The notes under the pieces are model-generated. The model saw nothing but the letters and a program-made list of their open reading frames with translations, made no database searches and was not told the origin of the DNA. The position numbers and the translations under genes were made by a program. From NCBI RefSeq assembly GCF_020991085.1, contig NZ_CP087719.1:1508001-1572000 (forward strand): a stretch of 64,000 bases of DNA, in the 5' to 3' direction. The DNA comes from Roseomonas sp. OT10. Its GTDB lineage: Bacteria > Pseudomonadota > Alphaproteobacteria > Acetobacterales > Acetobacteraceae. This document shows, piece by piece, positions 3,673-46,862 of the stretch; position 1 is the stretch's first letter; the number at the start of each line of letters is the position of its first letter.

Positions 3673-5265
3673 ATGCGTCGTCGGACTCTGCTGGGGAGCG
3701 CCGCCGCGGGCGGGCTTGCCGCGCTCGCCTCGCCGGCCGTGGCGCAGCCCGCGCGCACCGCCGCCCTGCGCTTCGTGCCGCAGGCGAACCTGACGGCGCT
3801 GGACCCGATCTGGACCTCGGCCATCGTCACGCAGATGCATGGCTATGCGGTCTATGACACGCTCTATGCCGTGGACTCGCAGCAGCGGCCGCAACCGCAG
3901 ATGGCGGAGGGCCACACCGTCTCGGATGACGGCCGGGTCTGGCGTATCCGCCTGCGCGAGGGGCTGAAGTTCCACGACGACACGCCGGTGCGGGCGCAGG
4001 ACTGCGCCGCCAGCCTGGAGCGGTGGTCGAAGCGCGACGGCTTCGGCCAGGCGCTGGCGCGCTCGGTCGACAGCTGGGGCGCGGCGGACGACCGCACGCT
4101 GGAGATCCGGCTGAAGCGGCCCTTCCCGCTGCTGCTGGATGCCATCGCCAAGCCGGACGCCAACGTCGCCTTCATCATGCCCGAGCGCGTGGCGCGCGGC
4201 ACGGACGCCAACACCCAGATCACGGAGATCGTCGGCTCCGGCCCCTATCGCTTCCTGCGCGACGAGTTCGTCACCGGCAGCCGCGTCGCCTATGCGAAGT
4301 TCGACGGCTATGTGCCGCGCCAGGGCGCGCCGGACTGGGCGACGGGCGGCAAGGTCGCGCACTACCCGCGCATCGAGTGGCACATCCTGACCGACCCGGC
4401 GACGGCGGCGGCCGCCTTGCAGAACGGCGAGGTGGACTGGCTGGAACAGCCGCTGGGCGATCTGATCCCGACGCTGAAGCGCAACCGCGACATCACGGTG
4501 GACGTGCTGGCGCCGGCCGGCACGATGAGCGTGATGCGGCTGAACCACCTGCAACCGCCCTTCGACAACCCGAAGGTGCGCCGCGCCGTGGCGCTGGCGG
4601 TGAACCAGCCGGACTACATGACCGCCATCCTGGGCGACGAGAAATCCGTCTGGCGCGAGTGCCACAGCCTGTTCCCCTGCGGCACGCCCTACGGCGTCGA
4701 GAACCTCTCAGCCCTCAACGCCCCGCCGCGCAGCCTGGACCGGGCCAAGCAGGCGCTCGCTGAATCGGGCTATGCCGGGCAGAAGGTGGTCATCATCAAC
4801 CCCACCGACTTCCCGCTGATCGCGCCGCACGGCCAGATCACCGCCGATGCGCTGCGGCGGATCGGGATGAACGTGGAGCTGGCGGAGACGGACTGGGGCA
4901 CGGTGGTGCAGCGCCGCGCCTCGCGCGAGCCGGTGGAGAAGGGCGGCTGGAGCATCTTCCACACCTTCGGCTCGGCGCTGGCCTACCTGAACCCGGCCGT
5001 CTCCACCCTGGTCCGGGGCAACGGAGCGGCGGGCTGGTTCGGCTGGTACACCAGCCCGGGGACGGAGGAGAAGATCCAGGCCTGGTTCGACGCCGCGGAC
5101 CCGGCCGACCAGAAGCGCTTGGCCGAGGAGATCAACCGGGTCGCCCAGGACGACGTGGCCACGGTGCCGCTGGGCCAGTTCTTCATCCGCAGCGCCTGGC
5201 GCAAGAGCATCACGCCGCCGCTGAAGGGCTCGATGCCGTACATGTGGGGGGTGAAGCCGGCCTGA
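3673..5265 (+). CDS. ABC transporter substrate-binding protein, family 5 (peptide/nickel type)
   Basis: This 530-residue periplasmic solute-binding protein is of the DppA/OppA class. The N-terminus MRRRTLLGSAAAGGLAAL carries a twin-arginine-like motif followed by a hydrophobic run and an AVAQP cleavage region. Family landmarks are LTALDPIWTS near residues 40-50, MAEGHTVSDDGRVWRIRLREGLKFHD near 76-103 and VRRAVALAVNQPDYM near 305-320. No permease or ATPase genes are adjacent, so this is an orphan binding protein. It must work with an importer encoded elsewhere or act as a receptor. It ends 13 bases before the convergent metallo-hydrolase gene. The ligand cannot be predicted. Confidence 0.92.
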   Translation: MRRRTLLGSAAAGGLAALASPAVAQPARTAALRFVPQANLTALDPIWTSAIVTQMHGYAVYDTLYAVDSQQRPQPQMAEGHTVSDDGRVWRIRLREGLKFHDDTPVRAQDCAASLERWSKRDGFGQALARSVDSWGAADDRTLEIRLKRPFPLLLDAIAKPDANVAFIMPERVARGTDANTQITEIVGSGPYRFLRDEFVTGSRVAYAKFDGYVPRQGAPDWATGGKVAHYPRIEWHILTDPATAAAALQNGEVDWLEQPLGDLIPTLKRNRDITVDVLAPAGTMSVMRLNHLQPPFDNPKVRRAVALAVNQPDYMTAILGDEKSVWRECHSLFPCGTPYGVENLSALNAPPRSLDRAKQALAESGYAGQKVVIINPTDFPLIAPHGQITADALRRIGMNVELAETDWGTVVQRRASREPVEKGGWSIFHTFGSALAYLNPAVSTLVRGNGAAGWFGWYTSPGTEEKIQAWFDAADPADQKRLAEEINRVAQDDVATVPLGQFFIRSAWRKSITPPLKGSMPYMWGVKPA

Positions 5266-5278
5266 CCGGCCCGTCCCG

Positions 5279-6247
5279 CTACATCGGCAGCACCAGCGTC
5301 TCGCCGAAGGCGGGCACGCGGAAGGCGTCGGGCGGCAACCCGGCGGCCTCCCGCGCCGCCTCCATTCCCAGCACCGGCGCGTCGATCGCCTCCCGCGTCA
5401 GGCGGAAGGTGCCGAAATGCATGGCCACCGCCGTCCGCACCCGCAGGTCGCCGCGCATCCGCACCGCCTCCTCCGGGTCCACATGGACGACCTGCATGAA
5501 CCAGCGCGGCTCGTAGGCGCCGATCGGGACCAGCCCGACGCCGAAGGGACCGAGGCGTGCCCCGATCTCCGCTAGGTGCGGGCCATAGGCGGTGTCGCCC
5601 GCGAAGAAGAACCGCCCGCCTCCACGGGTCGTCACCGCGAAGCCGCCCCAGAGCATGCGGCCCGCGTCGCGAAAGCTCCGCGCGGAGAAATGCCGCATCG
5701 GCAGGTAGGTGGCCATCGCGCCCTGCGGCAGGGCCGACTCCTGCCACCAGTCCAGCTCCTCCGCCCCCGCGATCCCCTTGCGCGCGAGGTAGGCGCCGCA
5801 GCCCAGCCCGGTGAGGATGCGCGGGGCGCGCAGCGCGCGGAGCGTCGGCAGGTCCATGTGGTCGTAGTGGTTGTGCGACAGCAGCACCGCGTCGATCGGC
5901 GGCAATGCTTCCAGGGCCAGGGCGGGCGCCCGGTGGCGCTTCGGCCCGGCGAAGGAGAGGGGGCTGCAACGCGCGCTCCAGATCGGGTCGGTCAGCAGGG
6001 TCGGGCCGCCGGCGAAGCGGATCAGGAAGCTGTCATGGCCGATGAAGGTCACCGCCACATGGCCCGGCGGCGGCTCGGCCGGCGGGGGGAGCGGCGGGTC
6101 CTCCACCCATTCCGGCCAGGGCGGGCCGGGCGGTTCCCGGCGCAGCTTCCACACCGCGCGCCAGGGCTGGCCGGCGCGGCCGCCATCCGGGTTCAGGAAG
6201 CGCCCGCCCGGGCCGCGCCGGGCTCCGGCGGGTGGCGCCTCGCTCAA
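5279..6247 (-). CDS. MBL-fold metallo-hydrolase, UlaG/NAPE-PLD type
   Basis: About 322 residues with a metallo-beta-lactamase fold. The zinc motif HNHYDH is at residues 125-130, preceded by the TFIGHDSFLI strand and LLTDPIWSAR, typical of the UlaG / NAPE-phospholipase-D-like branch. Later ligands are in MRHFSAR, FFAGDTAYG and AMHFGTF. I take the start as TTG 6247, because its last two bases lie within the stop codon of the upstream DUF815 gene (TTGA). The frame stays open far upstream, but that part overlaps the DUF815 gene and has no homology-like character. The protein is probably cytosolic. The substrate is unknown: phosphodiesters and lactones are both used in this branch. Confidence 0.85.
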   Translation of the reverse strand: MSEAPPAGARRGPGGRFLNPDGGRAGQPWRAVWKLRREPPGPPWPEWVEDPPLPPPAEPPPGHVAVTFIGHDSFLIRFAGGPTLLTDPIWSARCSPLSFAGPKRHRAPALALEALPPIDAVLLSHNHYDHMDLPTLRALRAPRILTGLGCGAYLARKGIAGAEELDWWQESALPQGAMATYLPMRHFSARSFRDAGRMLWGGFAVTTRGGGRFFFAGDTAYGPHLAEIGARLGPFGVGLVPIGAYEPRWFMQVVHVDPEEAVRMRGDLRVRTAVAMHFGTFRLTREAIDAPVLGMEAAREAAGLPPDAFRVPAFGETLVLPM

Positions 6248-11563: not shown

Positions 11564-14572
<3,009 letters not shown>

Positions 14573-15416: not shown

Positions 15417-18242
15417 GTGAGCGAGAGCGACGACGACGGCAGCAGCCCCGGCGAGGAGCCGGGCTCGGGCACGACCCCCGAAGGCACGCTGACGGGGATT
15501 CCCGTGGCGCTCGAGGAGGAGATGCGCCGCTCCTACCTCGATTATGCGATGAGCGTGATCGTCTCGCGCGCCCTGCCGGATGCGCGGGACGGGCTGAAGC
15601 CCGTGCACCGGCGCATCCTCTTCGCGATGCACGAGGCGGGCTACACGCCGGACAAGCCGCACCGCAAGTCGGCCCGCGTGGTCGGCGACGTGATGGGCGT
15701 CTACCACCCGCATGGCGACGCCGCGATCTACGACGCCATGGTCCGCATGGCGCAGCCCTTCTCGATGCGGCTGCCGCTGATCGACGGGCAGGGGAATTTC
15801 GGCTCGATCGACGGCGATCCGCCGGCGGCGATGCGCTACACCGAGGCGCGTCTGGCGAAGTCCGCCGCCGCGCTGCTGGCCGGCATCGACGAGGACACGG
15901 TCGACTTCCAGCCGAACTACGACGAGAGCGCGCAGGAGCCGCGGGTCCTGCCGGCGGCCTTCCCGAACCTGCTGGTGAACGGCGCCAACGGCATCGCCGT
16001 CGGCATGGCGACGAACATCCCGACCCACAATGCAGGGGAGGTGATCGACGCGACGCTCGCGCTGATCCGCGAGCCGGATACGACGCTGGAAGAACTGATG
16101 CGGATCATCCCCGGGCCGGACTTCCCGACCGGCGGGCTGATCCTCGGGCGTTCCGGCATCCGGCTGGCCTTCGAGACGGGGCGCGGCTCCATCCCCGTGC
16201 GGGCGCGCGCCAGCATCGAGGAGCTGCGCGGCGGCCGCTCCCTCATCGCGATCACCGAGATCCCGTACCAGGTCAACAAGACGACGCTGATCGAGCGCAT
16301 GGCGGAGCTGGTGCGCTCCAAGCAGGTCGAGGGCATCTCCGACCTGCGCGACGAGAGCGACCGCTCCGGCATGCGCATCGTCGTCGAGCTGAAGCGCGAG
16401 GCGACGCCGGAGGTGGTGCTGAACCAGCTCTACCGCTTCACCGCGCTGCAGACGACCTTCGCGGTGAATATGCTGGCGCTCGACCACGGCCGGCCGCGGC
16501 AGATGGGGCTGAAGGACGCGCTGCAGGCCTTCATCGCCTTCCGCGAGGAGGTGATCCTCCGCCGCTCGCGCTACCGGCTGGGCAAGGCGCGCGAGCGCGG
16601 CCACCTGCTGATCGGCCTGGCCATCGCGGTCGCCAACATCGACGAGGTGATCCGCCTGATCCGCGAGAGCCCCGACGCGAACGCGGCGCGGGAGGCGTTG
16701 ATGGCGCGCGCCTGGCCGGCGGGCGATGTCGGCGCGCTGCTGGCGCTGGTGGACGATGCGGGCAACGTCGTCATCGACGACACGGTGCACCTCACCGAGA
16801 CCCAGGCGCGCGGCATCCTGGAGCTGCGGCTCCAGCGCCTCACCGGCCTGGAGCGCGAGAAGATCATCGCCGAGCTGGACGAGATCGCCGGGCGCATCCG
16901 CGAGCTGCTGGAGATCCTCGCCTCCCGCCCGCGCCGGCTGGAGCTGATGGCGCAGGAGCTGGCGGAGGTCCGCGCCCAGATCGCGACGCCGCGCCTGACG
17001 GAGATCGTGGACGGCTTCGCCGAGCAGGATGACGAGAGCCTGATCGAGCCGGGGCTGATGGTCGTCACCCTGACCCGCGACGGCTACGTCAAGCGCACGA
17101 CGCTGGAGAGCTTCCGCGCGCAGAACCGCGGCGGGCGCGGGCGTTCGGCCGCCACGACGCGCGAGGACGACGTGGTCGTGCGCTCCTTCAACGCGCACAC
17201 GCACCAGTGGGTGCTGTTCTTCACCTCGCGCGGGATGGCCTTCCGCGAGAAGGTGTGGAAGCTGCCGCTCGCCGCCCCGGCCGCGCGCGGCCGTTCCCTG
17301 CGCCAGCTCCTCCAGCTCCAGCAGGACGAGCAGGTGACGGCGGTCCTGCCGCTGCCGCAGGACGAGTCGCTGTGGGACAACCTGCACCTCGTCTTCGCGA
17401 CCATCCAGGGCAACGTCCGGCGCAACCGCCTGTCGGATTTCCGCAACGTCCGCTCCACCGGCCTCATCGCCATGAAGCTGGACGAGGGGGATTCGCTGGT
17501 CGGCGTGCAGACCTGCCGCGAGGGGGACGACGTGATGCTCGCGACCCGCGGCGGCCGCTGCATCCGCTTCGTGGCGGAGGCGGACCAGCTCCGCGTCTTC
17601 GCCGGGCGCGACAGCACGGGGGTGCGCGGCATCCGCCTCGCCGACGGGGACAGCGTGATCGCGCTGTCCGTGCTGCGCCACGTCGCGGCGACCCAGGCGG
17701 AGCGCATGGCCTATCTCAAGGCCGCCGCCGCGAGGCGCCGCAACGGCGCCGAGGAGGGCGAGGCGGAGGCGAACGGCAACGGCGCCGAGGTGGAGGCCGA
17801 GGAGAGCGAGGAGGAGGGGGAGGGCGCCTCCCTGTCCGCCGAGCGCCTGTCCGAGATGGAGCAGGCGGAGGAGCTGATCCTCTCCGTCACCGATGGCGGC
17901 TTCGGCAAGCGTTCCTCGGCCTACGAGTACCGGGTGACCGGGCGCGGCGGGCAGGGGATCTCCAACATCTCCCTCAGCCCCCGCACCGGGCGCGAGGTGG
18001 TGGCGACCTTCCCGGCGCGCCCCGGGGACGACGTGATGCTGGTGACCGATGCCGGCCGCCTGATCCGCCTACCGGTCGACCAGGTCCGGGTGACCGGGCG
18101 GCAGGCCATGGGCGTCACCCTGCTGCGGCTTGACGACAGCGAGCGCGTCACCTCCTGCTTCCCCGTGGTGGAGGATGGAGAGGCCACGGATGCCGGAGCG
18201 GGGGAAACCGCGGCGGGAGACAGCGGGGCGGAGGATGCCTGA
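15417..18242 (+). CDS. gyrA: DNA gyrase subunit A
   Basis: A 941-residue type II topoisomerase subunit that introduces negative supercoils together with GyrB. The catalytic Tyr is Tyr141 in AMRYTEARL. The GyrA box QNRGGRG begins at residue 569, which separates it from ParC. The QRDR reads [10 protein letters not shown], so the position of E. coli Ser83 is Ala102, while Asp106 matches Asp87. The C-terminal pinwheel contains an acidic insertion (about 778-830, rich in Glu and Ala) between two blades. The start is GTG 15417, with GAACGAGAG just upstream. The stop overlaps the probable start of coaD by a few bases. Confidence 0.97.
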
Positions 18243-33186: not shown

Positions 33187-33252
33187 ACCCGCTGGCCCTC
33201 CGTATCGTCCAGGCTCGCGGCGCCATACGCGCGGCGTCCCTGGTGGCGTGGC

Positions 33253-33609
33253 GCCCGTGGCCCGGGGGCAAGGCTCTGCCTCGCCCCCGTACCCCCACTC
33301 CGCCAGGACCCTGCGGGCCCTGGACCCGATCAGCGCTGCCGCGGGACAGCTTTCGACGGGGTCACAGCGCCGAGGAGCCATGCTCCTCGGCGGGTACAGC
33401 CGCAGCACTCTCTGACGCCTTCTGAAGTTTTTCCAGAGTCCCGCCTGTCCACGCTCTGTCAGGGTTCAGCCCGGAGGCTGAAGCCTACCGGAAGCACCAA
33501 ACTCCCAGCGGGGACCGGGGCCCGCTTGTGGCCCCGGCAGGGGAGGGTCCGGGACGGGGATCGACGCACGGCGTCGATGCCGAAGGCCGGCGTCCCCTCC
33601 CGGTCCGAC
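33253..33609 (+). repeat. Structured interspersed repeat, copy A
   Basis: This fills most of the gene-free stretch 33187-33655 between convergent genes. It matches the reverse complement of about 45127-45468, at roughly 80-85% identity by eye apart from gaps. Its hairpins, in order, are 33263-33289 (GGGGGC arms and an inner AGGC/GCCT); 33368-33392 (11-bp CGCCGAGGAGC stem, loop CAT); 33465-33482 (TTCAGCC stem); 33515-33537 (CCGGGGCC stem, 7-base loop); and an extra 33560-33578 (ATCGACGC stem). The extra hairpin lies in an insertion absent from copy B. I see no gene in it. The outer parts, 33187-33252 and 33610-33655, show nothing recognisable. Confidence 0.85.
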
Positions 33610-33655
33610 GATGGAACACCACAGCACGACGGTTCAAGACATCCCGCCATCCGTA

Positions 33656-35515
33656 TCAGGCGGCCGGTTCCTCCGGTGCCCGGCTGCGCTCGCGCTCGGA
33701 TTGCAGGGCCAGGGCCTGGGCCAGCCCGGCCATCTCGCGCAGCGTGCTGACCACCGTCTCGTTCTGGCCCTCGGCGCGCAGCGCCTGCAGCATCGGGCTG
33801 TCGGCATCCGTGTGCCAAAGCGCGATGATCACCGTGGCATCCGGCAACTGCCGCCGGATGCGTCGCAGGAAGTAGCGGATGCTGGCGGCGCTGTTGCCCT
33901 CCTCCAGCACGCAGAGGCAGCACAGCCGCACGGTTGTCGGATCCAGCCGTTCCAGATGCGCGCCCAGCACGGCATTCGGCTCTGCGCGCGCGCCGAAGCC
34001 GTGGCGCTGCAGCACCTGCGCCGCCATGCCGGCGCCCAGGTCGTCGAAGCGGCTGCGCCCGGCGACGCAGACCACCGCATCCTCCCGCCGCCAGCCCGGC
34101 GGCAGCTCCCCCGTCAGGGCGGCCGGACGCGCGACGGCCGGCAGCGGCAGGTCGCGATGCGCCAGATCATCCAGCAAGGTCTCGATCTGCTGGTGCATCG
34201 CCTCCAGCCGCTCGCCCTCCAGCGCCTCCCGCGTCATGTCCGCCTGGGCCAGGACCAGCCCCCGCAGTGCCACCTCGTCGTAGTAGGTGGCCAGGGGCGT
34301 GTCGCGCAGCCGGCGCTTCGCCTGCTCCACCAGCCCGTCGGCATCGCCTTCGAGCGCGCGCTGGTAGAAGGTTTCTTCCGGCCGCAGCGGCGGCCGGTCG
34401 CCGAGCATGACGTCGAGGAACTCCAGCCGGTCGACATGCCGCCCCAGCACGACGAGGCAGACGGTGAGCGGTGTCGCCAGCAGCAGCCCGATCGGGCCCC
34501 ACATGAAGGTCCAGAAGGTCGCGGAGAGGATCACCGAGATCGGCGAGAGCCCGGTGCTCTGGCTGTAGAGCAGGGGCTCGACCAGCTGGCTCATCAGCAG
34601 CCCGCAGACCGCGTAGAGCGCCAGCACCTGCAGGGCCAGGCTCCAGCCGGGGTCCACCGCCAGGGCCAGCAGCAGCATGGGCGCCAGGGCGATCGGGTTG
34701 CCCAGGAAGGGCACGAAGCGCATCAGCCCGGCCAGGATCCCCCAGAGCGGCGGGTTGGGTAGCCCGATCGCCCAGAGGCCGAGGGCGATGGCGATGCCGA
34801 AGCAGGCATTCACCCCCACCTGGCTGAGGAAGAATCGCGACAGCCGGTAGGCGGCGTCGTTCATCGCCAGCGTGGTGCGCGGCAGGTCGCGGCTGCCGGC
34901 CAGGCGGACCAGCCGGTCGCGCAGGTTCTCGCGGTAGAGCAGGACGAAGACGGTAAAGACGATCACCACGCCGGTCGTCGCCAGGGGCCCCAGCAGGGGG
35001 GTGACGATGCTGCCCAGCAGGCCCAGCGCGCTGGTGTCGGGGCCGGTGCCCTCGATCACCGTGGCCGGGCGCCGGGCGGGGCGCTCCGCCTCCTCCCCGC
35101 CGCGGTTCAGCGCCTGGCCGAGGTCGCGCAGCGTGGCATTGGCACGCTCCAGCATCTGCCCGCCCATGCGCACCGAATCCAGCTTCGCGCGCATGGTGGC
35201 CTGGTAGGCCGGAAGGTTCTCCGCCAGCAGCCCCACCTGCCGGCCGACCGCAGCGCCGATGCCGAGGATGATGGCGAAGGCCAGCAGCACGGCGATCAGC
35301 ACCGCCGGGGCGCCGGGCAGACGGAGGCTGCGGAACAGCCGGACCAGCGGCGCCAGGACGAAGGCCAGCAGGACCGCCAGCACCAGGGGGACGAAGAGAT
35401 CGCGGCCGAAGTAGATGGCCGCCACCACGATCGCCCCGTTGACCAGGGTGCCGGAGGCGGGGGCCACGAGGGCGGAGGTCGTCAGGGCCGGCCGCCGGGG
35501 GTCGAAAGGGGCCAT
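33656..35515 (-). CDS. AI-2E family transporter with long soluble C-terminal region
   Basis: A 619-residue protein. Residues 24-360 form the AI-2E/PerM-type permease: helices at about 24-60 and 70-92, a soluble insert to about 165, then helices to 360. It carries the family segments MRFVPFLGNPIALAPM and SQLVEPLLYSQSTGLSP. Residues 371-619 form an unusual soluble extension. A helical stretch (371-460, with QRALEGDADGLVEQAKRRL) leads into an alpha/beta part starting AVVCVAGRSRFDDLGAGMAAQVLQ. The latter resembles a cobalamin-binding-like Rossmann fold but lacks the DxHxxG cobalamin motif. Plain family members stop near 350-380 residues. The transported molecule is unknown. Confidence 0.85.
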   Translation of the reverse strand: MAPFDPRRPALTTSALVAPASGTLVNGAIVVAAIYFGRDLFVPLVLAVLLAFVLAPLVRLFRSLRLPGAPAVLIAVLLAFAIILGIGAAVGRQVGLLAENLPAYQATMRAKLDSVRMGGQMLERANATLRDLGQALNRGGEEAERPARRPATVIEGTGPDTSALGLLGSIVTPLLGPLATTGVVIVFTVFVLLYRENLRDRLVRLAGSRDLPRTTLAMNDAAYRLSRFFLSQVGVNACFGIAIALGLWAIGLPNPPLWGILAGLMRFVPFLGNPIALAPMLLLALAVDPGWSLALQVLALYAVCGLLMSQLVEPLLYSQSTGLSPISVILSATFWTFMWGPIGLLLATPLTVCLVVLGRHVDRLEFLDVMLGDRPPLRPEETFYQRALEGDADGLVEQAKRRLRDTPLATYYDEVALRGLVLAQADMTREALEGERLEAMHQQIETLLDDLAHRDLPLPAVARPAALTGELPPGWRREDAVVCVAGRSRFDDLGAGMAAQVLQRHGFGARAEPNAVLGAHLERLDPTTVRLCCLCVLEEGNSAASIRYFLRRIRRQLPDATVIIALWHTDADSPMLQALRAEGQNETVVSTLREMAGLAQALALQSERERSRAPEEPAA

Positions 35516-45045: not shown

Positions 45046-45126
45046 CGGCAGGTCCCCGCCGTCCCGACAGGGCGGGGCGGGGCGCGCTGGCGGGATGTCG
45101 CGACCTTTTGCGCTGGGCGCCCTGGC

Positions 45127-45468
45127 GTGGGACCGGGAGGGGACGCCGTCCCCTCCCAGGCCCTCCCCTGCCGGGGCCACAAGCGGGCCCCGGACCCCGC
45201 TGGGGGTCTGGTGCTTCGTGGCCGCCGTCAGCCTGCGGGCTGAACCCTGACGGAGCTCGGACAGGCGGGACTCCAGAAGAAATCCAGAAAGCGTCAGCGC
45301 GAGCGGAGGCCGTACCCGCCGAGGAGCGTGGCTCCTCGGCGCCTCGACCCCGTCGCAGTCATCCGCGCGGCAGCGCTGATCGGGTCCAGGGCCCCCAAGG
45401 GGGATCAGCGGGGCCTGGCGGAGTGGGGGTATCGGGGGCGAGGCGGAGCCTTGCCCCCGGGCCATGGG
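45127..45468 (-). repeat. Structured interspersed repeat, copy B (inverted relative to copy A)
   Basis: This occupies most of the gene-free stretch 45046-45506 between convergent genes. It is the reverse complement of copy A, with matching hairpins in the same order: 45433-45459, 45317-45341 (11-bp CGCCGAGGAGC stem), 45228-45243 and 45171-45193. At 45135-45157 a perfect 10-bp GGGAGGGGAC stem takes the place of the insertion seen in copy A. Loops differ where stems are kept: CAT in A, and CAC in B when read in the A orientation. Before it, 45054-45077 is a CCCCGCC/GGCGGGG hairpin that may end ybbP transcription. I see no gene here. Confidence 0.85.
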
Positions 45469-45506: not shown

Positions 45507-46862
45507 TCAGACGAAGGCGTAGTCGCCCGCTGCCAGGGCAACGCCGCCGCTGCTGACCAACAGCCGCCCCAGCGCCTCGCCGCCGGCATGGACCTCGTAG
45601 ACCAGGGCGTTGCCCGTGCTGCCAACGAGGTCGAGGGTCGCGCCGGGGCCGAAGCCGCTCAGCCGGATGACGTCGCCGCCGGCCACGCCTGCGCCCTGGA
45701 AGTCCACGATGTGGTCCGTGGCGTTGGTGGCCCCCAGCTCGCCGCGGGCGATGGCGAAGGTGTCGTTGCCGCCCCCGCCGGCCATGCGGTCCGCGCCCTG
45801 GCCGCCGGTGATCAGGTCGTTGCCGCCGCCGCCGTTCAGCACGTCGTTCCCTGCACCGCCGTTCAGCGCATCCGCGGCCGCCCCGCCGCGCAGCGTGTCG
45901 TCCCCGTCCAGCCCCGCAATCAGCACCCGGTCCGTGGCCGTGCTGCGGTCGAACAGGTCCGCCGAGGCCGTGCCCCGCAGGTAGGCGGGGCTGCCCGCGC
46001 CGACCGAGACGGTCACGGTGGCGGTGTCGGACAGGCCGGTGCCGTCGCCGACGGTATAGGTGAAGCTGGCCGTGCCGCTGAACCCGGCGGCCGGGGTGAA
46101 GGTGATGGTGCCGCCGGCGAGCGCGACGCTGCCATGGGTAGCGCCGCCCACCCCGGTCACGGCCAAGCTGTCGCCATCCGCGTCCGTGTCGTTGGCGAGG
46201 AGCAGTGCCGCGGAGAGGGTCAGCGGCGTGCCGAAGGCGGTGGAGACGGAGTCCGCGGCGGCGACCGGCGCGTCCGGCACCGGGGTCACCGTGATCACGA
46301 CCGGCGTCCGCTGCTGTGGCCCGCCGAAGGCACCGAAGCTGAGGTAGAAGGAATCGGTGCCGTTGTAGTCGGGATCCGGCGTGTAGAAGATGAACTGCTC
46401 CCGGGTGTAGTCCGGGTTTCCTTCCTGCGTCGTCTCGCCATGCGCGGGCTGGGTGTAGGTCGTCCCGCCACCCAGGGCGATGACGTAGGACGTCACGAAG
46501 ACCCGCGAATCCTCCGCCACCGTCAGCTCCAGCGCCGGCAGGTCCGGCAGCCCGTAGCGGATCTGGATGACGGCGGAGGAGGTCAGCCCGGCGGGATCGG
46601 CCACCGTGTAGACGATGGTGGAGAGCGAGGCGCCGGCGGAGAAGTCGCCGATGTAGTAGATCCCCTCCGGCGTCAACTCGACCGAGCCGGTGCTGCCGGT
46701 CGAGAGGGTCGCCCCGACGACCGTCAGTGGATCGCCATCCGGGTCGGAGTCGTTGGCGAGGAGGTCCTCCACCGGCAGGAAGGTGACGACGTCCGGCCGG
46801 ATATCAAAGGCATCGTCGGCTGCCATGGGGGCGGCGTTGGCAAGCGCGGCGGCGGAGGCCAT
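45507..46862 (-). CDS. Secreted RTX-type calcium-binding protein with cadherin-like domains
   Basis: A 451-residue protein without an N-terminal signal. Two Ig/cadherin-like domains (about residues 15-105 and 200-290) carry the family segments LLANDSDPDGDPLTVV and LLANDTDADGDSLAVTGV. Between them is a third beta-rich stretch. Residues 305-380 hold RTX nonapeptides of the GGxGxD type (GGAGNDVLNGGGGND). The end DHIVDFQGA...VIRLSGFG is the usual C-terminal type I secretion signal region. I therefore expect export by a type I system not encoded here, and an adhesive or surface role. It is convergent with ybbP and divergent from the deaminase gene. Confidence 0.88.
   Translation of the reverse strand: MASAAALANAAPMAADDAFDIRPDVVTFLPVEDLLANDSDPDGDPLTVVGATLSTGSTGSVELTPEGIYYIGDFSAGASLSTIVYTVADPAGLTSSAVIQIRYGLPDLPALELTVAEDSRVFVTSYVIALGGGTTYTQPAHGETTQEGNPDYTREQFIFYTPDPDYNGTDSFYLSFGAFGGPQQRTPVVITVTPVPDAPVAAADSVSTAFGTPLTLSAALLLANDTDADGDSLAVTGVGGATHGSVALAGGTITFTPAAGFSGTASFTYTVGDGTGLSDTATVTVSVGAGSPAYLRGTASADLFDRSTATDRVLIAGLDGDDTLRGGAAADALNGGAGNDVLNGGGGNDLITGGQGADRMAGGGGNDTFAIARGELGATNATDHIVDFQGAGVAGGDVIRLSGFGPGATLDLVGSTGNALVYEVHAGGEALGRLLVSSGGVALAAGDYAFV

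What the first reader, a model, noticed from the sequence alone, without database searches (positions are those of the whole stretch)
33253..33609. Paired, inverted, multi-hairpin interspersed repeat (copies A and B)
About 340 bases at 33253-33609 match the reverse complement of 45127-45468, 12 kb away. Identity is roughly 80-85% by eye outside a few gaps. At least four hairpins are kept in both, including an 11-bp stem whose 3-base loop differs (CAT versus CAC). A 7-base loop is the same in both copies of the CCGGGGCC hairpin. Stem preservation with loop and linker drift suggests selection on folded RNA or DNA. Both copies sit between convergent genes and neither contains an open frame. Copy A carries an extra hairpin where copy B has a perfect 10-bp stem. 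This looks like an undescribed structured repeat family, possibly a terminator/recombination element or a non-coding RNA.
Basis: partly seen in the sequence, partly recalled or inferred. Interest (0 to 1): 0.75.

Follow-up and report, generated by a model that had tools for sequence, protein, structure and literature searches.

The report
Paired hairpin repeat between converging genes
A 430-base, mirror-built set of hairpins with the footprints of a transposon sits in many places where two genes of this bacterium run towards each other, and related bacteria carry the same design, which suggests an apparently undescribed mobile signal for ending gene transcripts.

Summary
Copies A and B belong to a family with 213 core matches in the genome. 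In 1.66 Mb read here 109 copies are near full length; of the 107 with genes on both sides, 85 lie between convergent genes, 22 between tandem genes, none between divergent genes. In an unbiased 400 kb all 24 convergent gaps of 235-3000 bases hold one. So they arrived by transposition. Inside lie two head-to-head units (hairpin, C-rich linker, hairpin) around a central hairpin. Nearest-neighbour copies differ at 16-22% of sites in the end repeats but 0% in three core blocks. The unit is found in 78 of 249 genomes of the family, and in 2 of 289 drawn from the class, this one included, with compensatory stem changes. Best reading: a formerly mobile, bidirectional transcript-end element. Termination is inferred; neither copy has a U-tract and I had no RNA data.

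The parts
33223..33225 (.). Copy A, left target duplication (CCA here, probably a changed TCA)
   Evidence: Sequence; duplication rule
33226..33245 (+). Copy A, left terminal inverted repeat (consensus TACSGACGGCGGGATG), decayed
33264..33288 (+). Copy A, outer hairpin H1L (GGGGGCAAGGC-TCT-GCCTCGCCCCC)
   Evidence: R2 match 33264-33333, 73.7 bits; stems
33289..33302 (+). Copy A, conserved C-rich linker (GTACCCCCACTCCG)
   Evidence: No difference at 143 compared sites in 11 nearest-neighbour pairs of copies
33303..33323 (+). Copy A, hairpin H2L (CCAGGACCC-TGC-GGGCCCTGG)
33368..33392 (.). Copy A, central hairpin H3 (11-bp stem, loop CAT)
33515..33537 (-). Copy A, hairpin H2R (CCGGGGCC, 7-base loop)
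33550..33603 (-). Copy A, outer hairpin H1R with the extra inner hairpin (not reached by model R2)
33640..33655 (-). Copy A, right terminal inverted repeat
   Evidence: The end-repeat pattern with 1 mismatch is listed at C1:1541640-1541659 = window 33640-33659, duplication included
33656..33658 (-). Copy A, right target duplication TCA = TGA stop codon of gene 33656-35515(-)
45507..45509 (-). Copy B, target duplication TGA = stop codon of gene 45507-46862(-)
45434..45458 (-). Copy B, outer hairpin H1L
   Evidence: R2 match 45377-45458 (-), 53 bits
45386..45418 (-). Copy B, hairpin H2L with an insertion in its upper stem
45134..45203 (+). Copy B, right-hand unit (H1R-linker-H2R), found with the same model as the left-hand unit
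   Evidence: R2 match, 36.6 bits, E 6.4e-06
45082..45097 (+). Copy B, right terminal inverted repeat, decayed (placed by eye)

Best explanation
It is a formerly mobile, non-coding element that serves as a transcript-end signal for both genes of a convergent pair. Shown: it has terminal inverted repeats and duplicates a TSA target, most often a TGA stop codon, which leaves the stop codon whole; it holds two head-to-head copies of one unit (H1 hairpin, C-rich linker, H2 hairpin) around a central hairpin; the hairpins and the left linker are held nearly fixed in copies whose ends and most other linkers have drifted. Inferred: whichever gene is read, its transcript leaves the stop codon, enters H1-linker-H2 and the central hairpin, and meets the mirror unit; these stable structures stop the polymerase (with Rho or a pause rather than a U-tract) or block 3' exonucleases, so that neither transcript runs as antisense far into the other gene.
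For: Placement: 85 convergent, 22 tandem, 0 divergent of the 107 full-length copies with genes on both sides, against 57 convergent, 218 tandem, 58 divergent gene pairs in an unbiased 400 kb. In that 400 kb 34 head-to-head pairs account for 68 of 70 units, and all 24 convergent gaps of 235-3000 bases hold a pair. Transposition: target triplets equal in 45 of 49 copies where both ends read TSA; 45 of 91 overall, shuffle mean 24, maximum 37 in 5000. Constraint: 11 mutual nearest-neighbour pairs of copies, 8.2-10.5% apart, differ at 0.159 and 0.220 per site in the end repeats and 0.131-0.136 in three inner linkers (0.077 in a fourth), but at 0 of 625 sites in left linker, H2L and H2R, and 0.015-0.033 in H1L, H3, H1R and right linker. 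Structure across species: from 127 half units, 29 distinct H2 and 38 distinct H1 strings with compensatory changes; Watson-Crick fraction 0.915 and 0.895 against shuffled maxima 0.792 and 0.822. Breadth: 78 of 249 genomes of the family, 34 of 102 genera. At one site Roseomonas mucosa has lost the inside but keeps one outer hairpin.
Against: No intrinsic terminator (no U-tract) and no promoter by consensus in either copy. 33 of 57 convergent gaps, all but one 234 bases or shorter, do without it. One compact pair lies in a gap called divergent. Of three G012 sites read in R. mucosa one holds the element, one keeps a single outer hairpin, one keeps only debris, so it is dispensable. Placement follows without any function from a CTSAG target (40 of 42 such sites in element-free convergent gaps under 200 bases are stop codons) plus loss of harmful insertions. 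Singletons per site are only 1.46 times rarer in stems than in other inner sites. Wobble counts point, weakly, to the outward-read strand rather than the strand first read by the nearest gene. 171 of 249 family genomes show no match at this threshold. No RNA data were at hand.
Confidence: 0.5

Rival explanations
1. A purely selfish MITE-like element. It lands at CTSAG, which in convergent gaps is nearly always a stop codon; insertions elsewhere are lost because they hurt. The hairpins were needed by the element itself (for mobility), or are kept alike by gene conversion.
For: End repeats and target duplications; stop codon equals the duplication in 65 of 91, which target preference explains (40 of 42 background sites at stops); presence and absence between sister genomes; singleton rates in stems and non-stems differ little.
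Against: No recent copy among 109: nearest pair 8.2% apart. What mobility needs most, the end repeats, is the least conserved part (0.21-0.23 from consensus, against 0.006-0.051 for hairpins). Conversion would be expected to carry along the linkers lying between stems. No parent IS found, though only part of the genome was read.
Confidence: 0.28
2. A DNA-level element: cruciform-prone palindromes or a binding site for gyrase or a nucleoid protein, placed where convergent transcription piles up positive supercoils (as proposed for BIMEs in E. coli; recalled).
For: Convergent placement; near-perfect palindromes; fixed linear sequence in the left linker as well as in stems, as a protein site would show.
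Against: The inner H2 pairs change sequence between genera while pairing is kept, which argues for structure over a fixed site; no binding data.
Confidence: 0.12
3. A processed non-coding RNA: the element is cut out of the convergent transcripts, or read outward from within, and acts in trans.
For: Non-Watson-Crick pairs in the H1/H2 stems are mostly A.C when read inward, that is G.U when read outward, so the outward-read RNA may be the folded one.
Against: No promoter-like site in either copy; hundreds of similar copies fit poorly with a trans-acting RNA; most of the wobble count comes from one inherited pair in H2 and one in H1L.
Confidence: 0.07

Closest known systems
Bacterial MITEs (such as NEMIS, RUP, Nezha)
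   Same: Terminal inverted repeats, no coding capacity, high copy number, foldable (definition in passages of PMC3733652); target duplication.
   Different: About 430 bases, above the 70-300 given there; 3-base TSA target; head-to-head double units; inner hairpins far better kept than the end repeats; no parent IS found.
REP/BIME elements (GTAG and CGTC families)
   Same: Palindromic units, many in inverted pairs, downstream of genes, mostly at convergent or tandem pairs (passages of PMC3733652).
   Different: REPs are 20-40 bases; here the unit is 63-75 bases with two hairpins and a linker, and no Y1 transposase is found in the genome. That paper says CGTC repeats are missing from Acetobacteraceae.
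RepRanger-predicted REPs of Lichenicola cladoniae
   Same: A genome (Acetobacteraceae by recall) with very many predicted palindromes (passages of PMC12306157).
   Different: A mechanical count; no family, architecture or convergent placement is described in the passages seen.
Bidirectional intrinsic terminators
   Same: Symmetric hairpins between convergent genes.
   Different: No U-tract hit on either strand of copies A and B; five hairpins with conserved linkers.
RIME / intergenic mosaic elements of rhizobia
   Same: Recalled: short intergenic elements of two palindromes in Alphaproteobacteria.
   Different: Recalled as about 108 bases in Rhizobiales; not compared by sequence. R2 matches 2 of 289 genomes drawn from the class, one of them this genome.

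Membership tests
MITE | Terminal inverted repeats | tested here: met
   CTSATACSGACGGCGGGATG at both ends; in 1.66 Mb 126 such sites (3 or fewer mismatches) lie at copies and 0 elsewhere
MITE | Target-site duplication | tested here: met
   TSA, equal in 45 of 49 copies with TSA at both ends; 45 of 91 overall against shuffle mean 24
MITE | No coding capacity | tested here: met
   The codon-usage caller puts no gene inside any of 107 full copies; overlap with called genes at most 58 bases
MITE | A partner IS with matching ends | tested here: inconclusive
   12 loci fetched of 26 DUF4096 hits; ends of 10 of them compared and different; no end repeat at 4 or fewer mismatches in the 12, two chance-like ones at 5; whole genome not read
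MITE | Size 70-300 bases (PMC3733652) | tested here: not met
   About 430 bases; three compact forms in 400 kb, 209-215 bases between outer units, fit
REP/BIME | 20-40 base single palindrome unit | tested here: not met
   Unit of 63-75 bases with two hairpins
REP/BIME | RAYT (Y1) transposase in the genome | tested here: not met
   PF01797: 0 matches in the genome; controls ring in 5 of 14
REP/BIME | GTAG or CGTC tag at one end | not tested
   -
Intrinsic terminator | GC hairpin followed by a U-tract | tested here: not met
   0 sites in both copies, shuffle means 0.2 and 0.1; other copies not scanned
Transcript-end element (function) | RNA 3' ends at the hairpins | not testable with these tools
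   No expression data
Known Rfam family | Score at or above gathering | tested here: not met
   Only a tRNA in the window; best weak match over copy A is CRISPR-DR20, 26.7 bits against 42

The most novel reading that the evidence does not exclude
A new class of mobile genetic element of this bacterial family that carries a two-way transcript-end cassette and inserts into TGA stop codons, rebuilding the stop as it lands. It would spread by giving both convergent genes a clean 3' end, so that selfish spread and host use coincide, and would be the family's substitute for intrinsic terminators at high G+C.
Probability: 0.28. Interest if true: 0.78.

Novelty: new variant of a known kind. Interest (0 to 1): 0.6.

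Why it matters
How high-G+C bacteria end transcripts between convergent genes is, to my knowledge, poorly known. Here is a conserved design, seen in 34 of 102 sampled genera of one family, whose presence predicts the length of nearly every longer convergent gap in the 400 kb examined. It also gives a clean case of a transposon whose target preference (CTSAG) makes insertion at stop codons harmless, and of structures apparently held by selection at over a hundred sites at once. Each step can be tested with one strand-specific RNA-seq set.

Tried and rejected
RAYT/REP origin: rejected for lack of a Y1 transposase. Parent IS of the IS5 type: loci fetched, ends differ. Orthologous site of copy A: the AI-2E-type gene (name by recall) was followed into 12 genus mates; none shows the element behind it, and in those read by eye the downstream neighbours differ, so no empty site of copy A could be read. 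Shared gene pairs between this genome and G003/G012 in the stretches held: 17, none convergent and none with an element on either side. Intrinsic terminators and promoters: none in copies A and B. Rfam: none. Strand-polarity test by G.U against A.C: weak and dominated by two inherited pairs, so not used as proof. H4 was a wrongly placed stem and is ignored. Recombination hot spot: left open, see Noticed in passing.

Papers: passages only of PMC3733652 and PMC12306157; all others seen as search listings (titles and starts of abstracts). Where more papers matched than were listed the rest were not seen.

Genes were called with a codon-usage script of my own, not by a curated pipeline; tandem and divergent counts may hold misses.

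Full report
What was checked. The two copies are there as described: three inverted blocks of 173, 68 and 48 nt at 83, 91 and 88%. Rfam has no family for them. A search of the window's own genome (5.69 Mb, 3 contigs) with copy A gave 40 long places, copy A itself among them and the other 39 at 83-91%, and 13 short ones; the tool scored 40 of 407 candidates. The 17-base core ACCCCCACTCCGCCAGG, at most one mismatch, occurs 213 times, 103 forward and 110 reverse, against 0 for the reversed control.

Census and placement. Stretches adding up to 1.66 Mb of the genome, window included, were read. Those (400 kb in a row) were chosen as a block; the others because they hold a listed core match. A profile from 30 loci and copy B finds 132 matches, 109 near full length. 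With a codon-usage gene caller, 85 lie between convergent, 22 between tandem and 0 between divergent genes, 2 at a stretch end. Gene pairs in the 400 kb are 57 convergent, 218 tandem, 58 divergent. A covariance model of the half unit (R2) finds 70 units in the 400 kb: 34 head-to-head pairs and 2 single units. Pairs fall in 24 convergent gaps (343-653 bases), 9 tandem and 1 called divergent; three of the pairs are compact forms of 209-215 bases (2 tandem, 1 divergent). The 33 convergent gaps without a pair measure -23 to 234 bases, and one 3499. Apart from that one the lengths do not overlap.

Transposition footprints. Outside H1L and H1R lie end repeats, CTSATACSGACGGCGGGATG read inward from each side. 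Where both could be placed (91 of 108 copies with anchors) the target triplets are the same in 45, against a shuffle mean of 24 and maximum of 37 in 5000; of 49 with TSA at both ends 45 agree. In 1.66 Mb, 126 end-repeat sites lie at copies and none elsewhere. In 65 of 91 copies one duplication is exactly the stop codon of a flanking gene. The same is seen in copy A (33656-33658) and copy B (45507-45509) by sequence. It needs no stop-codon sensing: of 42 CTSAG sites in element-free convergent gaps under 200 bases, 40 are stop codons. No RAYT transposase is found, and the DUF4096-type IS elements whose ends were read have other ends, so the transposase is unknown.

Constraint. Copies are old: the closest pair of 109 differs by 8.2% and the mean pair by 16%. 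Over 11 mutual nearest-neighbour pairs the differences per site are 0.159 and 0.220 in the end repeats, 0.179 and 0.132 just inside them, 0.131-0.136 in three inner linkers and 0.077 in a fourth, 0.033 in H1L, 0.015 in H3, 0.016 in H1R, 0.021 in the right linker, and 0 of 143, 0 of 231 and 0 of 251 in the left linker, H2L and H2R. From consensus the end repeats stand at 0.21-0.23, hairpins at 0.006-0.051. Against this, singletons per site are 0.34 in stems (35 over 104 sites) and 0.49 in the other inner sites (100 over 204), a ratio of only 1.46; variable sites hide singletons, so I weigh more. Conservation within this genome covers sequence and not only pairing, so repair of imperfect palindromes alone does not explain it.

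Relatives. The architecture, not just the first hairpin, is found in genus mates G003 and G012: in G012 13 convergent and 7 tandem, in G003 4 convergent and 8 tandem, 1 at an edge; these stretches were chosen for holding matches. G004 is Roseomonas mucosa ATCC BAA-692. Farther off in the family the element is compact: stop codon, H1, linker, H2, a central palindrome, then the mirror image and the other gene's stop. Of the 12 loci fetched for having R1 matches, seven (G203 x4, G065, G109 x2) are convergent with units from both sides. The three G096 loci are tandem gaps; one has a single unit and two a second unit on the other strand at 30.4 and 56.5 bits. The G177 locus has a facing pair but no right-hand gene call, the G197 locus one strong unit. 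R2 finds the unit in 78 of 249 genomes of the family (34 of 102 genera) at E 1e-4. In a draw of 289 from the class it matches 2: this genome and one of another family, once, E 1.7e-5; three genomes listed as the same family had none. R1, made from genus copies alone, found 32 of 200.

Pairing across species. 127 half units went in (16 from other genera, 64 from G003/G012, 47 distinct from this genome). Kept were hairpins with a pairing score of 6 or more, distinct strings only: 29 for H2, 38 for H1. The three H2 pairs next to the loop change on both sides in 27 cells and pair in 96-100%; H1 pairs 4-7 change on both sides in 29 cells and pair in 68-100%. Overall Watson-Crick fractions 0.915 (H2) and 0.895 (H1) exceed all 500 shuffles (maxima 0.792 and 0.822). 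Shuffles do not keep relatedness, and the choice by pairing leans the same way; stems such as CCAGGAACC/GGTTCCTGG and CCAGGAGCAT/ATGCTCCTGG speak for themselves. H2 pair 6 is A.C in 15, A-T in 11, G-C in 3: a wobble only if the outward strand is the RNA. This is a hint, not proof.

Turnover. Three sites of G012 were read in R. mucosa. Site c has the element. Site a keeps one outer hairpin only, in the same gap behind the same stop codon. Site b keeps inner debris without the outer hairpins. So the element can be lost, and is not essential at every site.

Mechanism. The steps shown are transposition, landing at stop codons, and later constraint on hairpins and linker. The step inferred is that they end or protect transcripts from both sides. 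Neither copy has a U-tract; the unit's C-rich, G-poor linker would suit Rho loading, which is a recalled property of Rho sites and was not tested.

Novelty. Searches for Roseomonas or Acetobacteraceae with repeat, MITE, REP, terminator or structured-RNA terms listed nothing on it by title and abstract start; two searches looked for convergent-gene repeats in general. The library is open access only and several listings were cut, so this is not proof of absence. It resembles MITEs and BIMEs and does not meet either definition in full; hence 'new variant of a known kind'.

Noticed in passing
L079 16432 to L080 1246 (G012); L094 8429-13248 (G003): A 4.8-kb segment is inverted between G012 and G003, and both ends lie in or at units of this repeat in both genomes, as recombination between inverted copies would leave it.
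   Followed up: partly
L084 (G012) 5125-5395, 12043-12401, 17515-17886: Three more of the five G012/G003 synteny breaks in 40 kb fall inside elements of G012, but the G003 ends show no unit at E 0.01 (only chance-level scores of 13.7-16.2 bits near two of them). The fifth break (L084 7197-7262) is not in an element.
   Followed up: partly
L201 about 895-965 (own genome C1 near 1034401): An IS with DUF4096-type transposase has landed at the foot of the central hairpin H3 of one element copy.
   Followed up: partly
G000 C1:360835-361043, 412529-412743, 481807-482015: A second, compact form of the element (209-215 bases between outer units, long central palindrome), like that of G203, coexists with the 430-base form.
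   Followed up: partly
window 33548-33583 (-): The extra hairpin in copy A's right arm resembles Rfam CRISPR-DR20 (26.7 bits, below its gathering score 42, E 0.0018); probably chance likeness of palindromes.
   Followed up: no
G000 contig C2: C2 carries 15 of the 26 DUF4096-type transposase matches, nine of them one 285-aa frame with the same score; it also holds one unit of this repeat (C2:8474-8544).
   Followed up: no
L055 (G012 near C1:706320): The element is cut after its first unit, and a frame that looks like an IS110-type transposase (name from recall, read by eye) begins shortly beyond.
   Followed up: no
L167 (G007) behind the AI-2E-type gene: A single plain GC hairpin (CGGGGGAGGC...GCCTCCCCCG) follows the stop codon here, where copy A stands in the window genome.
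   Followed up: no
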